From Bradyrhizobium barranii subsp. barranii (GTDB taxonomy: Bacteria; Pseudomonadota; Alphaproteobacteria; Rhizobiales; Xanthobacteraceae): a stretch of 64,000 nucleotides of DNA. Location of the stretch: assembly GCF_017565645.3 (NCBI RefSeq), contig NZ_CP086136.1, forward strand, positions 2,308,001 through 2,372,000, read 5' to 3'. The number at the start of each line of letters is the position of its first letter. Positions within the stretch are counted from its first letter, which is position 1. Shown piece by piece: positions 1,224-9,401 of this stretch. The translations under genes and the position numbers were made by a program. The notes below the pieces were generated by a model that worked only from the letters and a program-made list of their open reading frames with translations, had not been told where the DNA came from and searched no databases.

Positions 1224-1853
1224 CTACCGCGTCCCGTAAGCGCGGTCGCCGGCATCGCCGAGGCCCGGCAGGATAAAGCCGTTCTCGTCGAGACCTTCGT
1301 CCACTGCAGCCGTCCAGATCGGAACGTCGGGATGCAGTCCACGCAGCCGTTCGAGCCCCTCAGGGGCCGCGATCAGGCAGGCGAGGCGGATGTCCCTGGC
1401 GCCGCGCTCCTTCAGCCGGTCGATTGCGGCGACGGCCGTGTTGGCGGTGGCAACCACCGGGGTCACCACGATCGCCAGGCGCTCGCTGAGGTCGGACGGC
1501 GATTTGAAGAAATACTCGACCGCGGCAAAACTGAGCGGCTCGCGGTAGAGGCCGATATGGGCGACGCGCGCGGTCGGCACCAGATCCATCATGCCGTCGA
1601 CGAAGGTCGTGCCGGCCCGCAGCATAGGCACGAACACCAGCTTCTTGCCGGCGATCTTGGCCGAATGCATCGTCGCCAGCGGCGTCTCGATGACGGTATC
1701 GGCGAGCGGCAGATCCCGCGTGATCTCGTAGCACAGCAGCATGCCGATCTCCTTGATCAGCTCGCGGAAGGACTTGGTCGAGATGGACTTGTCCCGCACC
1801 AGCGTCAGCTTGTGCTGCACCAGCGGATGATCGACGATCGTGACGCCTTCCAT
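1224..1853 (-). CDS. upp: Uracil phosphoribosyltransferase, URC-associated, with a divergent PRPP loop
   Basis: 209 aa, the usual UPRT length. UPRT makes UMP from uracil and PRPP in the cytoplasm. The uracil-binding C-terminus [14 protein letters not shown], the VPMLRAG segment and the [11 protein letters not shown] segment are all conserved. The PRPP loop, normally DPMLATGGS, reads TPVVATANT here: the acidic residue and the glycine pair are gone. It is the last gene of a minus-strand operon with the URC4-like and URC1-like genes, which fits the URC pathway, where uracil is first converted to UMP. The altered loop may mean changed PRPP binding or loss of activity; family membership itself is secure. 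Confidence 0.9.
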
Positions 1854-1905
1854 GATGGGATGCTCCTGAAATTCATCGATATGGACTACGCTGCGGACGA
1901 ATGGA

Positions 1906-3144
1906 TTAAAAAACCGTGCCGTCGCTGATCACCTTGAGCGGCGGTGCGCCGTCGGGCCGGAGCGCGAAGGCGATGGCGCGGCCGGCAGCCCAGCTGCCAC
2001 CTTCGAGAATGCTTGCGAGGGGCAAGGTCTCGGGCGTGCGGCCGAGCTTGCTGCGGACGCTGCTCGCAAGCCGGTCGAGCAGCGCGACGGTGAGCGCGCG
2101 CCACTCCACGACGAGCAGGGAATCCACCGCATGCGCGCGCTCGGCATCGGCGGGATCGCGCAGGCGCAACACCTCGTGATCGACGAACAGGCCGCCATTG
2201 CGGTATTCGGCAAGTCCGGTCAGGCCGTCGATGTCGGTGACGTCAAAGCCGGCGCGCTGCAGCGGCTCGATCAGCGAATAGCTCAGCCATTGCGACAGCT
2301 TGTGCAGGGGTACGAGGCCTGCCGTTCCGTCGTCCGCCCCGATCGCCGGATGACGCCAGCAATCGCCGAGCGGAATCCCGGCGAGCTCGAGCCGTGACGG
2401 CCAGATCGGTCCAAGCTGGTTCAGCACTGCGGACAGGATGGCGGGTGCGGCGACCGCGCCGCCCACAGCCTGTGCCGCGATGTGATCGAACAAGCCGCCT
2501 GGCCGCGGCGTATCGTGCAGGCCGAAAATGTCCGCACGCTCGGCAACCAGCTTGCCCAGACGTCGCAGCAGATCAGTGCGTCCGTCGAGACCGAGCAGCG
2601 GATTGGCATCGCTCACCTGAAAGGCCGAGGTGAGGGAGGCGAGCGGTAGTTTCGCCAGCACGTCTGCATCGGCCCTGAACGGCGCACGCGCATCGCCGGA
2701 GAACAGGCCGCCTGCAAACATGTCGAGGCTTGCGATGGCAAGCCCCTCCGATCGGCCGATACTTTCGCCGGTCACAGCGTCGCGATAGCGCCACGTGGCT
2801 CCCGCACCTGCGTCGAGCAGCACGCTGACAATGGCGAGGTCGAACTCGGCGCGCGCACGTGCCGCGCGATCCGGCCACGATGCGACGTTGGCAAGCCTCG
2901 CCCAGCGATCGACGCCGCCGAGCACGAAATGCCGCCAGCGGGCATGGAAGGGAATCTCCAGCGTCGGATAGGCCTTGCGCGTGACCGCGATCACGGCCTC
3001 CGCGACGCCGTCCATGCGGTCGAGGTCGATCGTGAAGTGCCGGAGCCCGCCGGCAAGGCCGATCTCGAGCATTTTGCCGGCACGCGCACGAACAGCTCCT
3101 GCGCTGAGCAGGGAGCGGGCCTGTTGTTCCAAAGCCTCCGCCAT
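1906..3144 (-). CDS. URC4/Urg3-like protein (DUF1688), uracil catabolism
   Basis: 412 aa, matching DUF1688 proteins related to yeast URC4. Recognisable segments include the N-terminal [20 protein letters not shown] region, PYHARWRHF-like residues ([10 protein letters not shown]) near 105, a [14 protein letters not shown] segment near residue 210, and the C-terminal [16 protein letters not shown]. No signal peptide or membrane segment is seen, so it is cytoplasmic. It lies only 7 bp after the URC1-like gene and 52 bp before upp, so the three are very likely one transcript. In the yeast URC pathway URC4 acts after UMP formation; its exact chemistry is not settled, and the role here is inferred from family and context. 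Confidence 0.85.
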
Positions 3145-3151
3145 CGCGCGA

Positions 3152-4408
3152 TCAGTACTTTTCCAGCGAGCGCCCGACCACGCCGTTCACGTCCTTCTCC
3201 GGCGCGATGTCGGTCGAGTAATAGCCGGCAGCCTTTTTCGCGGCGATCTCGACATAGGCGTCGGCCGGGATCAGCTCCGGCGGGATCGGCACGCGCTCGA
3301 CGATGTCGATGCCCTGCGAGGTCAGCGCGTCATGCTTCATGTCGCTCATCGACAGGAAGCGGTCGATGCGCTTCAGGCCGAGCCAGTGAATGGTATCCGG
3401 CATCAATTGCTGGAAGCGCGCGTCCTGGACGCCGGCGACGCATTCGGTGCGCTCGAAATAGGCGGCCGCCGCGTCGCCGTCCTCCTGGCGCTTGCGCGCA
3501 TTGTAGACCAGGAATTTGGTGACCTCGCCGAGCGCGCGGCCTTCCTTGCGGTTGTAGATGACGAGCCCGAGCCCGCCTTCCTGCGCGCCGCGCGCGGATT
3601 CCTCGATGCCGTGAATGAGATAGGGCCGGCAGGTGCAGATGTCGGAGCCGAACACGTCGGAGCCGTTGCACTCGTCATGCACGCGGCAAGTGATCTTGGT
3701 GCGGTGGTCCGGCAGTTTTGTCACATCGCCGAACATGTAGACGGTGGTGCCGCCGATCGGCGGCAGAAACACCTTCATGTCCGGTCGGGTGACCAACTCG
3801 GGGAACATGCCGGCGGTCTGCTCGAACAGCGTGCGCCGCAGCTCGGTCTCGCCGGTGCCGAAGCGCGTCGCGAGGCCCGGCAGGTACCAGACCGGATCGA
3901 TCGCGATCTTCACCACCGACACGCTGCCATTGGCATGCACGACCTCGCCGTCGGCGCGCAGCCGTTTTGCGGCCAGCGCTTCACGGATCTCTGGCAGGTC
4001 GAGCCGCGCTCGCGTCACCGCGATACTCGGGCGGATGTCGACGCCCTCGGCGATGTCCTTGCCGAAATTCTCCGCGACGAGATGCCCCCAGGGATCGAGC
4101 GCGACGATCTTGTCGGGATCGCGCCATTGCTCGAACGGCCCGATGGTCGCGGCCGGAAAAGTGTTGGTGAGGTCGGGCCGGCGGATCGGATCGAGCGCGC
4201 CTGCGGACACCGCGAGAGCCCGGTACATCGCGTAGGAGCCGCCATGGCTGCCGATCACGTTGCGATCCCCAGCGCGCGATACCGTGCCGATGATCGGCCC
4301 CCGGGCGCGCGCGTCGGCTGCGTCCCAGTGAATTGGAAACGCGGCCTTTTTGCCCGGCTCCGGATGGGAGGTAAGGCGGATGTGATCGGTACGGTTCGCG
4401 CGGCTCAT
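3152..4408 (-). CDS. URC1-like GTP cyclohydrolase II family enzyme, uracil catabolism
   Basis: 418 aa, about twice the length of RibA. The zinc-binding pattern C-x10-C-x-C is exact at C247, C258 and C260 (within DECNGSDVFGSDICTC), followed by a GLVIYNRKEGR segment that matches the RibA catalytic region. The long N-terminal extension (about 1-200) and the absence of a DHBP synthase domain fit the URC1 type rather than riboflavin RibBA. The start ATG follows GGGAGC at a good distance. First gene of the urc1-urc4-upp operon. By analogy with yeast it would open the pyrimidine ring of a uracil nucleotide; that is knowledge of the family, not shown here. Confidence 0.88.
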   Translation of the reverse strand: MSRANRTDHIRLTSHPEPGKKAAFPIHWDAADARARGPIIGTVSRAGDRNVIGSHGGSYAMYRALAVSAGALDPIRRPDLTNTFPAATIGPFEQWRDPDKIVALDPWGHLVAENFGKDIAEGVDIRPSIAVTRARLDLPEIREALAAKRLRADGEVVHANGSVSVVKIAIDPVWYLPGLATRFGTGETELRRTLFEQTAGMFPELVTRPDMKVFLPPIGGTTVYMFGDVTKLPDHRTKITCRVHDECNGSDVFGSDICTCRPYLIHGIEESARGAQEGGLGLVIYNRKEGRALGEVTKFLVYNARKRQEDGDAAAAYFERTECVAGVQDARFQQLMPDTIHWLGLKRIDRFLSMSDMKHDALTSQGIDIVERVPIPPELIPADAYVEIAAKKAAGYYSTDIAPEKDVNGVVGRSLEKY

Positions 4409-4791
4409 GTCCAGGCTCCCAAAAAGCCGACGGCCCGCCGCTCGGACGGGCCTGGCTCACTTGCGCTACCGGTGCCGAACACCGGCGACGCGAGCTCAAT
4501 CCAACATATTGTAGCGGCTGGCGACGACAGACAAGTTAATGGTTCCCCGCCGGGCAGGCGACCCTGGCCAAATTCCCGTCACCGACGGGCCGGTCCGGCT
4601 CGCCTGGATGCCGCGCCTTCGCCCCGGCCGAACCTTGCTATTCGATCCGCGCGATAGGTCTAAGGATTTGAAATAGTTTTATTTTTTATGTTTTCAAGAG
4701 GGTGTCCCGCAAGTTGCGCCACCGCGGTGCCGTGGGCTGGACCGGACCCACATAATCGGACAAATAGGTCGCCTCTCGCCTGGAGAACGCC
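4409..4791. other. Intergenic region with divergent promoters (URC operon / PLP enzyme)
   Basis: 383 bp between divergent genes. It contains no convincing gene. An AT-rich stretch at about 4660-4700 contrasts with the GC-rich surroundings and is a likely place for promoter elements of the PLP enzyme. No operator could be named; the uracil-responsive control region of the URC operon would be expected here. Confidence 0.5.
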
Positions 4792-5919
4792 ATGCCCACC
4801 GCCAGCTACATCGACCCCCGCAACGGACAGCTCTATCCGCTGGACCAGCCGCGCTGGTGCTCGGACGAGCGCACGCCGCTGCTGGTGACGCCGGGACCAG
4901 GCATATCGCGCGCGGACATCGACGGCGCCACGCGCTCGCTCTGGCGCTACCGGGCGGCGCTGCCGGTCGAGATCAAGAAGCTGATCACGCTTGGCGAAGG
5001 CTGCACGCCGCTGGTCCAGCAGGACTGGGGCGATTTGCGTCCGTTCTTCAAGCTCGAATGGTTCAACCCGACCGGCAGCTTCAAGGACAGGGGGTCTTCG
5101 GTGATGCTGTCGTTCCTGCGGCAGATCGGCGTCGACGCGATCCTGGAGGATTCTTCGGGCAATGGCGGCTCGTCGATGGCGGGGTTAGGCGCCGCCGGCG
5201 GCATGCGCGTGAAGATCCTGGCGCCGGCCTCGACGTCGCCGGCCAAGATCGCGCAGGTGCGCGCCTATGGCGCGACGGTGCAGCTCGTCGAGGGGCCGCG
5301 CGAGGAGTCGGAGGCCGAGGCCATCCGGCAGTCGAGCCAGACCTTCTATGCCAGCCACAATTGGCAACCGTTCTTCCTCGAGGGCACCAAGTCGCTCGCC
5401 TATGAAATCTGGGAAGACCTCGGTTTTCGTGCGCCCGACAACGTCATCGTTCCCGTTGGCGCCGGCAGCAGCCTGCTCGGTTGCGCCTTCGGCTTCCGCG
5501 AGCTGCTGAAGGCCGGGCAGATCGCGAAGCTGCCGCGCCTGTTCGCGGCGCAGCCGCTAAACTGCTCGCCGATCGATGCCAGCTTCAAGGCCGGTGTCGA
5601 CACGCCGGTCGCCCGCGAGGTGAACAAGACCGTCGCCGAAGGCACCGCCATCAAGAATCCGCTGCGCCTGCGCGAGATCATCGGCAGCTTGCGCGAGAGC
5701 GGCGGCGGCACCGTTGCGCTGACCGAGGACGAGATCGTCGCCGCGTTGCGGCGTCTTGCGCGGCAGGGATTGTTTGCCGAACCGACCAGCGCCAGCGCGG
5801 CCGCTGCGTTGGAAAAACTCTCCGCGGCGGGATCGATCAAGGCGAACGAGACCACGGTCGCGGTCCTCACCGGCACCGGCCTGAAGGCCGCGACCACCGT
5901 CGCCGATCTCGTACAATAG
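4792..5919 (+). CDS. Threonine-synthase-like PLP-dependent enzyme (fold type II)
   Basis: 375 aa. The PLP lysine is K98 in NPTGSFKDRG, and the phosphate-binding segment SGNGGSSMAG follows at about 123-132. The C-terminal VAVLTGTGLK (near 358-367) matches threonine synthase / threonine dehydratase type proteins. Family enzymes convert O-phosphohomoserine to threonine or act in related beta-elimination and replacement reactions. No threonine-pathway gene is nearby, so the substrate is open; a second, specialised homologue is plausible. It is followed by a long palindromic repeat and stands alone on its strand. Confidence 0.8.
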   Translation: MPTASYIDPRNGQLYPLDQPRWCSDERTPLLVTPGPGISRADIDGATRSLWRYRAALPVEIKKLITLGEGCTPLVQQDWGDLRPFFKLEWFNPTGSFKDRGSSVMLSFLRQIGVDAILEDSSGNGGSSMAGLGAAGGMRVKILAPASTSPAKIAQVRAYGATVQLVEGPREESEAEAIRQSSQTFYASHNWQPFFLEGTKSLAYEIWEDLGFRAPDNVIVPVGAGSSLLGCAFGFRELLKAGQIAKLPRLFAAQPLNCSPIDASFKAGVDTPVAREVNKTVAEGTAIKNPLRLREIIGSLRESGGGTVALTEDEIVAALRRLARQGLFAEPTSASAAAALEKLSAAGSIKANETTVAVLTGTGLKAATTVADLVQ

Positions 5920-7614: not shown

Positions 7615-7853
7615 CTGAAGTCACAGGCCATATTTGCGGGCATTTCGCAAGCCACGGGCCCGTGAGGGAGATCATCCTTAACGTTTGGCGTTACCAAACC
7701 GGCAACCACGCTAATTTGCCTGAAAGCATTAGCCAAACAAGCGCATCGTCGCGCGGAGCAGGCCAGCGATGCCGGCTATTGCTTTGACGGAGGCGGCGAA
7801 CAATGATTGATCGAGGGGACATTTGAATATTGCCGGTTGCAGGGAGCTTTGGG
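7615..7853. other. Divergent intergenic region without a recognised gene
   Basis: About 240 bp between the divergent L,D-transpeptidase and ThDP-enzyme genes. It should hold both promoters. It is relatively AT-rich around 7670-7740. No hairpin, RNA gene or named operator was recognised. Confidence 0.4.
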
Positions 7854-9401
7854 ATGAACGGTGCGGAAAGCCTGGTGCGGACGATGGTCAAGGGTGGGGT
7901 GGATGTCTGCTTCACCAACCCAGGCACCTCCGAGATGCATTTTGTCGCGGCGCTCGATCGCGTACCGGGCATGCGCTGCGTGCTCGGCCTGTTCGAAGGC
8001 GTGGTGACGGGGGCCGCCGACGGCTATTTCCGCATGAAGGGCACGCCGGCTTCGACGCTGCTCCATCTCGGCCCCGGCCTGGCCAATGGCCTGGCCAATC
8101 TGCACAACGCCAAGAAGGCGAATTCCGGCATCGTCAACATCGTCGGCCAGCATGCGGTCTACCACATCGACTACAACGCGCCGCTGACCTCCGACATCGA
8201 GGGCCTGGCCCGGCCGATGTCGTCCTGGGTCCGCACCTCGCCGGACTCCAAATCGGTTGCAGCTGACGGCGCCGCGGCGATCGCCGCCGCCAAGAGCGCA
8301 CCGCCACAGATCGCGACCCTGATCCTGCCCGCCGACACCGCCTGGAACGAGGCCGATGGCATCGCCGAGGTACCGGCCGAGCAGCAGCGCGCCAGCTATT
8401 CGCCGCAGGCGGTCGAGCGGGCCGCGAAGATCCTGCACGGCGACGGCGAGGGTACGCTGCTGCTGATGACCGGCAGCGCGCTGAGCGAACAGGGCTTGGC
8501 GCTGGCCGAGCGTATCGCCGGCAAAACCGGCTGCACGGTGATGGGCCCGACCTTCCGTCCCAAGATGGCGCGCGGCCGCGGCCGCTATTCGATCGACCGC
8601 ATTCATTACGTGATCGAGAACGCGCTGCCGATGCTGGCGAAGTTCCGGCACATCGTGCTGGTCGAGTCCGATGATCCGGTGGCGTTCTTCGCCTATCCGA
8701 ACAAGCCGAGCATGCTCAAGCCCGAGGGCTGCGAGGTGCATCGCATGACCTCCTGGGGCGAGAATTCGGTCGCGGCGCTCGAAGCACTGGCCGGCGCGGT
8801 GAAGGCGAGCGCGAAGGACGTCAAGCCGCAGGCCTTGGCTGAGCTGGTGAAGCCGACCGGCGCGCTGACCTTCGCCTCGATCGCGCAGGCGATCGCATGC
8901 GCCATCCCCGAGAACGCGATCATGGTCGACGAATCCCTGACCACCGGCCGCGGCTTCTTCCCGCCGACGGCGGCGGCCGCTCCGCACGACTGGCTCCAGA
9001 ACATGGGCGGCTCGATCGGCTTCTCCACGCCGCTGTCGATCGGCGCGGCGATCGCCTGTCCGGACCGCAAGGTGATCACCATGGTCGGCGACGGCAGCGC
9101 GATGTACACGATCCAGTCGCTCTGGACGCAGGCCCGTGAGAACCTCAACATCGTCACCATCGTGTTCGCCAACCGCATCTACCAGATCCTGCGCGGCGAG
9201 TTCGACAATGTCGGCGCCGGCGAGCCCGGCCAGCGCGCCAACGACATGCTGCGGCTCGACCGTCCGACGCTGGACTTCGTCGCGCTGGCGAAGGGCATGG
9301 GCGTCCCCGGCCGCGCCGTCACCAATGCCGAAGAGTTCAACAAGGCTCTGGCCGAAGCCGTCGCCGAGCCCGGGCCGCGGCTGATCGAAGTCCAGATGTA
9401 G
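7854..9401 (+). CDS. Acetolactate-synthase-like ThDP-dependent enzyme
   Basis: 515 aa from the ATG at 7854, preceded by AGGGAGC; an upstream TTG at 7830 is less likely. The N-terminal segment NPGTSEMHF supplies the glutamate that activates ThDP, and GDGSAMYTIQSLW with a following asparagine (FANRIY) is the ThDP/Mg motif. Annotated relatives are called acetolactate synthase large subunit, but no small subunit or ilv gene is nearby, so branched-chain synthesis is doubtful; a 2-oxoacid decarboxylase or carboligase is the safer description. The next gene follows by 38 bp. Confidence 0.8.
   Translation: MNGAESLVRTMVKGGVDVCFTNPGTSEMHFVAALDRVPGMRCVLGLFEGVVTGAADGYFRMKGTPASTLLHLGPGLANGLANLHNAKKANSGIVNIVGQHAVYHIDYNAPLTSDIEGLARPMSSWVRTSPDSKSVAADGAAAIAAAKSAPPQIATLILPADTAWNEADGIAEVPAEQQRASYSPQAVERAAKILHGDGEGTLLLMTGSALSEQGLALAERIAGKTGCTVMGPTFRPKMARGRGRYSIDRIHYVIENALPMLAKFRHIVLVESDDPVAFFAYPNKPSMLKPEGCEVHRMTSWGENSVAALEALAGAVKASAKDVKPQALAELVKPTGALTFASIAQAIACAIPENAIMVDESLTTGRGFFPPTAAAAPHDWLQNMGGSIGFSTPLSIGAAIACPDRKVITMVGDGSAMYTIQSLWTQARENLNIVTIVFANRIYQILRGEFDNVGAGEPGQRANDMLRLDRPTLDFVALAKGMGVPGRAVTNAEEFNKALAEAVAEPGPRLIEVQM

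What the first reader, a model, noticed from the sequence alone, without database searches (positions are those of the whole stretch)
1224..4408. URC uracil-catabolism operon with a UPRT whose PRPP loop is rewritten
The minus-strand order URC1-like GTP cyclohydrolase II (3152-4408), URC4-like (1906-3144) and UPRT (1224-1853), with spacings of 7 and 52 bp, matches the URC pathway first described in yeast. The sequence shows that the UPRT keeps its uracil-binding end but has TPVVATANT where the PRPP loop DPMLATGGS is expected. Inference: in this pathway the UPRT may use a different donor, need a partner, or have become a regulator. A normal UPRT elsewhere in the genome would support a specialised role.
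Basis: partly seen in the sequence, partly recalled or inferred. Interest (0 to 1): 0.7.

Follow-up and report, generated by a model that had tools for sequence, protein, structure and literature searches.

The report
Uracil-breakdown operon with altered UPRT
A soil bacterium carries the known three-gene uracil-breakdown operon, and its uracil-activating enzyme has lost an otherwise unvarying acidic residue in the sugar-phosphate (PRPP) site while keeping nearly all the rest of its conserved residues, which suggests a working but retuned enzyme dedicated to this pathway.

The parts
3152..4408 (-). URC1 (418 aa): GTP-cyclohydrolase-II-like, probable UTP cyclohydrolase, first gene of the operon
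   Evidence: NF005536 742.4 bits, cut-off 403; PF12471 + PF00925; close to PDB 7ej3/7eev, 564 bits over residues 8-415, keeping the HDEC...ICTC cysteines (their role as zinc ligands is recalled)
1906..3144 (-). URC4 (412 aa, DUF1688): probable N-ribosyl hydrolase
1224..1853 (-). URC-linked uracil phosphoribosyltransferase (209 aa) lacking D131
1437..1463 (-). altered PRPP loop TPVVATANT, residues 131-139 in both the window protein and B. caldolyticus numbering
   Evidence: coordinates computed; alignment
4409..4791 (.). 383-bp gap between URC1 and the divergent threonine-synthase-like ORF (4792-5919 +); presumed to hold the operon promoter
   Evidence: coordinates; promoter not tested

Best explanation
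This is a bacterial URC operon. Its UPRT is most likely still a uracil + PRPP -> UMP enzyme, dedicated to feeding the pathway, but with altered recognition of the PRPP ribose: D131, the one acidic residue left in the UPRT version of the PRPP motif (recalled to contact the ribose hydroxyls), is replaced by small residues, with co-changes at G83T, L109F, M133V, N189D and Y193F. I expect weaker PRPP binding or faster UMP release, suited to catabolic flux. Inferred chain: UPRT makes UMP; kinases make UTP; URC1 opens the ring; URC4 hydrolyses the ribosylurea intermediate to urea and a ribose (phosphate); ureases use the urea. Shown: gene set, residue loss, its distribution, co-occurrence with URC4, selection, predicted folds. 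Inferred: all catalysis and kinetics.
For: 48 of 53 columns at least 93% conserved in stand-alone UPRTs are kept in the D-less clade, including R79, R104, A135 and T136 in all 28 representatives and D200 in 96%. R104 and D200 correspond to the catalytic R102/D198 proposed for the M. tuberculosis enzyme, and R79/R104 to its PRPP-binding R77/R102 (PMC3570474, passages). Median dN/dS 0.022 for this gene against 0.037 for the normal paralogue, 54 pairs among the same 11 genomes. The D-less type (at least 77% identical to the window protein; loop read in 93, the other 56 are 95-98% identical) occurs in 149 of 195 genus genomes, each with DUF1688. It is the only UPRT found in 24 genus genomes and 11 of 11 outside the genus; in the 33 of these 35 that I tested, no uridine kinase reaches the TIGR00235 cut-off (0 of 38 genomes in all), leaving no other uracil/uridine-to-UMP step that I could see. 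URC1-UTP link: PMC12507026 cites a 'UTP cyclohydrolase' paper for the URC pathway (passages). URC4 to urea: PMC7530994 (passages). Two ureC genes.
Against: D131 is present in 73 of 73 stand-alone and 40 of 70 URC-linked representatives, which suggests that it matters for activity. Some members degrade further: S139L in the SPVLATANL group, P132S in TSVVATANT. Position 131 drifts among T, S, A, V, Q, G, N and H, which fits loss of a role better than gain of a tuned one. Across all genus D-less pairs (3817) median dN/dS is higher, 0.106, with no matched figure for the normal copy, and pairs share one tree. Most of the 11 outside genomes are MAGs of unstated completeness and 2 of the 24 genus genomes are about 80% complete, so second UPRTs could be missed. 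In G472 URC1/URC4 (URC1 cut by the stretch fetched) stand with only a 53-aa UPRT remnant and a normal-type upp whose reading frame is interrupted, so the operon may persist there without any intact UPRT, if the draft is right. No kinetics exist. Uridine kinases outside TIGR00235, and PyrR, were not searched.
Confidence: 0.58

Rival explanations
1. It is a pseudo-UPRT that binds uracil but no longer transfers phosphoribose, and acts as a uracil sensor or scaffold for URC1/URC4, for example to stop URC1 draining the UTP pool when no uracil is present.
For: Loss of an otherwise invariant PRPP-motif residue with the C-terminal uracil segment largely kept; found only with URC4, 149 of 149 genus genomes; retained even in the 124 genus genomes that also have a normal UPRT.
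Against: Sole UPRT found, with no uridine kinase over the cut-off, in 33 tested genomes; the 5'-phosphate part of the loop (A135, T136, N138) is fully kept in the 28 representatives; sister genera use an ordinary D-type UPRT in the same position.
Confidence: 0.21
2. Position 131 is simply dispensable in this lineage: neutral drift after some other compensating change, with ordinary PRPP kinetics.
For: Residue 131 wanders among T, S, A, V, Q, G, N and H while nearly everything else is conserved.
Against: D is invariant in 73 of 73 stand-alone representatives; losses fall only on URC-linked branches, which are 32% of tree length, so about 3% by chance if there were three losses. That test is weak: one origin is not rejected (AU p 0.177).
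Confidence: 0.13
3. The enzyme has changed its donor or acceptor (not PRPP, or not uracil).
For: Within the PRPP motif mainly the ribose-contact position changed (that position 131 is the ribose contact is recalled).
Against: C-terminal uracil segment largely conserved; phosphate loop conserved; no alternative donor gene is seen in the operon; same operon position as D-type UPRTs.
Confidence: 0.05

Closest known systems
URC uracil-catabolism pathway (Lachancea kluyveri URC1/URC4/URC6; S. pombe urg1/urg3/urg2)
   Same: GTP-cyclohydrolase-II-like, DUF1688 and UPRT genes; PMC7530994 assigns URC1 + URC6 to 3-hydroxypropionate + ribosylurea and URC4 to urea release (passages); S. pombe cluster in PMC2174524 (passages)
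   Different: Bacterial operon order URC1-URC4-UPRT; urease genes elsewhere in the genome, where the yeast has urea amidolyase; UPRT lacks D131. The fungal UPRT loops were not examined.
Ordinary bacterial UPRT (upp; B. caldolyticus 1i5e)
   Same: Family models, full-length fold, R79, R104, T136, D200, C-terminal uracil segment
   Different: D131T and M133V; Y193F; G83T
URC-linked D-type UPRTs (Tardiphaga, Microvirga, Bosea, Azospirillum, Cupriavidus, Gordonia plasmid)
   Same: Same operon and position
   Different: They keep D131, and 36 of 40 representatives keep M133
Animal UPRT homologues (human UPRT, Drosophila kri)
   Same: A UPRT relative with an altered substrate site whose activity was doubted (PMC4536494, passages)
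   Different: The mirror case: they lack two glycines of the uracil site and keep the PRPP site
Queuosine-5'-phosphate hydrolase DUF2419 (7ugk, 7ulc) for URC4
   Different: 17-22% identity; substrate presumably ribosylurea (phosphate); no sequence-level match in the PDB at E up to 10

Membership tests
Uracil phosphoribosyltransferase (TIGR01091/NF001097/PF14681) | curated family cut-offs | tested here: met
   247.3 (cut-off 208.35), 266.6 (114), 236.6 (27) bits
Uracil phosphoribosyltransferase (TIGR01091/NF001097/PF14681) | UPRT fold | tested here: met
Uracil phosphoribosyltransferase (TIGR01091/NF001097/PF14681) | catalytic and PRPP residues R79, R104, D200 | tested here: met
   all three present in the window protein; roles from PMC3570474 (passages)
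Uracil phosphoribosyltransferase (TIGR01091/NF001097/PF14681) | acidic residue D131 of the PRPP motif (DPM) | tested here: not met
   T in the window; S/T/A/V in 28 representatives, N/H in 2. A near-universal feature rather than part of the curated family definition, so I call it a UPRT-family protein whose activity is unproved.
Uracil phosphoribosyltransferase (TIGR01091/NF001097/PF14681) | uracil + PRPP -> UMP activity | not testable with these tools
   needs an assay
URC pathway | URC1, URC4 and UPRT genes together | tested here: met
URC pathway | URC1 acts on UTP | not testable with these tools
   homology to 7ej3/7eev only; the UTP link comes from a reference title in PMC12507026, and that these PDB entries belong to that paper is recalled
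URC pathway | urea-using enzyme in the genome | tested here: met
   two ureC over cut-off; urea amidolyase not searched
Rut pathway (alternative) | RutA | tested here: not met
   best 104.3 bits against cut-off 498.3
DUF2419/Qng1 hydrolase (for URC4) | fold | tested here: met
DUF2419/Qng1 hydrolase (for URC4) | queuosine-5'-phosphate hydrolysis | not testable with these tools
   URC4 is not claimed to be a Qng1, only to work like one

The most novel reading that the evidence does not exclude
In this clade the URC-linked UPRT has stopped being a salvage enzyme and become a uracil-sensing partner that licenses URC1 to open the ring of UTP, with the loss of the PRPP-motif acid as the switch from catalyst to sensor; the same loss in Caulobacterales would be a parallel case.
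Probability: 0.15. Interest if true: 0.8.

Novelty: new variant of a known kind. Interest (0 to 1): 0.5.

Why it matters
A residue that is invariant in all stand-alone UPRTs sampled is absent from a widespread, strongly conserved, pathway-bound group, often the only UPRT found in the genome. That makes the role of this acid directly testable by nature's own series of variants (T, S, A, V, N, H against D in the same operon). The URC4 fold match also turns a domain of unknown function into a concrete enzyme hypothesis for the urea-releasing step.

Tried and rejected
Loop tracks the operon everywhere: rejected; URC-linked UPRTs of Microvirga, Bosea, Methylobacterium, Brevundimonas, Tardiphaga, Azospirillum, Cupriavidus and Gordonia keep D131.

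Paralogue redundancy explains the loss: rejected as a general cause; in 24 genus genomes and 11 of 11 outside it only the altered copy was found.

Decaying pseudogene: rejected. Three proven independent losses: not claimed; parsimony gives three changes, but one clade is not rejected (AU p 0.177).

G472 as natural complementation: I first read it as a normal upp replacing a lost D-less copy. I lowered the best explanation from 0.60 to 0.58 for this and moved the points to two rivals.

Protein P0173, which Pfam scans as UPRT + DUF1688, looks like a frame-shifted metagenome read-through rather than a fusion, so I did not use it. Ten paper searches showed nothing on the altered loop in their listings (open-access library only). 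Papers not held.

Limits: 'stand-alone' means no URC1/URC4 hit in the flank fetched (about 1.5-2 kb, less at contig ends); a few loci were sampled in both draws (e.g. L291 and L322). 58 D-less single-gene loci without flank were labelled URC by their loop; coordinates put 57 of 58 within 1.4 kb of DUF1688, and G492 has the two on different contigs. Representatives (143 of 348 UPRTs) were clustered at 93%. The 40 URC-linked D-types are D by selection and give no independent support for invariance.

Full report
WHAT IS THERE. On the minus strand, 4408-3152, 3144-1906 and 1853-1224 encode URC1, URC4 and UPRT with gaps of 7 and 52 bp. The genome (11.4 Mb, 4 contigs; Bradyrhizobium by the names of near-identical proteins) has one DUF1688 match and one further full-length UPRT, 61% identical, with DPMLATGNS. 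A third PF14681 hit is marginal, 27.9 bits.

WHICH LOOP CHANGES MATTER. In B. caldolyticus numbering, which here equals the window's own, the loop reads T131 P132 V133 V134 A135 T136 A137 N138 T139. Among 73 stand-alone representatives D131 and M133 are invariant, but N138 is the commonest residue (37 of 73), A137 occurs in 4 and T139 in 7; V134 is seen in 3dmp. So only D131T and M133V fall outside the normal range. The PRPP motif of phosphoribosyltransferases carries two acidic residues (PMC10380321, passage). UPRTs have a proline at the second (alignment, with recalled motif register), so this protein has none. That D131 contacts the ribose hydroxyls is recalled, not from a call.

DISTRIBUTION. 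In the first phylum draw DUF1688 was found in 26 of 398 genomes. From a class draw (123 genomes) and a second phylum draw (140), 96 loci with UPRTs were read, not all the hits listed: 83 without and 13 with URC1/URC4 in the flank, all with D131 (counts checked). Of 80 named DUF1688 loci (the best 80 of 570, so relatives near the query are favoured), 78 held 80 UPRTs: 31 with D131 (two of them divergent normal copies) and 49 without (T31 S10 V4 A2 N1 H1). D131-less ones occur in Bradyrhizobium, Pseudolabrys, other Xanthobacteraceae/Hyphomicrobiales MAGs, one unclassified Proteobacteria MAG, a MAG labelled Rhizobium and Caulobacter; Microvirga, Bosea, Methylobacterium, Brevundimonas and Tardiphaga keep D. 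The normal paralogue has DPMLATGNS in 30 of 30 read. Among the best 120, 120 and 118 proteins of three searches, position 131 is T, A, S, V, Q, G, N or H as well as D. After clustering at 93%: stand-alone 73 D, 0 other; URC-linked 40 D, 30 other.

HISTORY. On a tree built without the loop columns, D/not-D needs three changes: one large clade (28 representatives, S/T/A/V; support 80, not strong) next to a group with DPMLATANT or DPMLATANS (Tardiphaga-like), one in Caulobacter, one in a Pseudolabrys MAG. Holding all D-less rows together is not rejected (AU p 0.177). URC-linked branches make 32% of the capped tree length, so three of three losses there by chance is about 3%: suggestive, not strong.

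CO-CHANGES AND SELECTION. Of 53 well-conserved columns the large clade keeps 48; the others are T108 (some S), D131, M133, G137 (A in half of the URC-linked D-types too) and Y193 (mostly F). G83T, L109F, R187G and N189D are also typical. In 54 of the 55 pairs of 11 genomes (one dropped for low dS), median dN/dS is 0.022 against 0.037 for the normal copy; across all genus D-less pairs (3817) it is 0.106.

CO-OCCURRENCE. In 195 genus genomes DUF1688 is in 153 and the D-less UPRT type in 149, all of which have DUF1688; the type was called by at least 77% identity, with the loop read in 93. The four exceptions are G111 (contig edge), G429 and G485 (fragmented assemblies) and G472, where a 53-aa UPRT remnant follows URC4 and the normal-type upp beside the operon has an interrupted frame. 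124 genomes have both copies; 25 lack a recognised normal copy: 24 with a single UPRT match plus G200, whose second match I did not identify. Outside the genus 11 of 11 D-less genomes have one UPRT match (L135, a Bradyrhizobium, was not held). Uridine kinase reached its cut-off in 0 of 38 genomes, 33 of them D-less-only; weak hits of 24-48 bits are probably other kinases. In the same search 7 of 14 control genomes pass the cut-off.

VERDICT. A known kind of operon with a real, lineage-specific and pathway-restricted change in an otherwise invariant residue. The genomes where it is the only UPRT found, with no uridine kinase over the cut-off, and the conserved catalytic residues favour a working enzyme with altered PRPP handling; only an assay can decide.

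Noticed in passing
L128 3790-4416, L144 3766-4392; G540, G502, G513, G583, G564, G563, G445, G545, G438, G530: In at least ten Bradyrhizobium genomes the normal upp lies divergently just upstream of URC1, so both UPRTs flank the operon.
   Followed up: partly
L204, L206, L211, L213, L215-L220, L222-L224, L226: A Bradyrhizobium subgroup has also lost the loop S/T139 (SPVLATANL or APVLATANL), including genomes where no other UPRT was found (G567, G493).
   Followed up: partly
L102, L229; 13 of 120 proteins of one search: Some members also lose the conserved P132 (TSVVATANT).
   Followed up: no
L032 (G091), L041 (G246): URC1-URC4 with only a divergent upstream D-type UPRT (L032), and with no UPRT in the 5 kb on either side (L041).
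   Followed up: partly
L228 and L358 (G472): URC1-URC4 with a UPRT remnant behind URC4 and a neighbouring normal-type upp with an interrupted frame.
   Followed up: partly
L056, Gordonia polyisoprenivorans plasmid p174: A complete URC1-URC4-upp operon on an actinobacterial plasmid.
   Followed up: no
window 4792-5919 +: Threonine-synthase-like ORF divergent from the operon, under the family cut-off (256.7 of 301 bits).
   Followed up: no
window 7830-9401 +: Acetolactate-synthase-like protein (NF005760, 802 bits).
   Followed up: no
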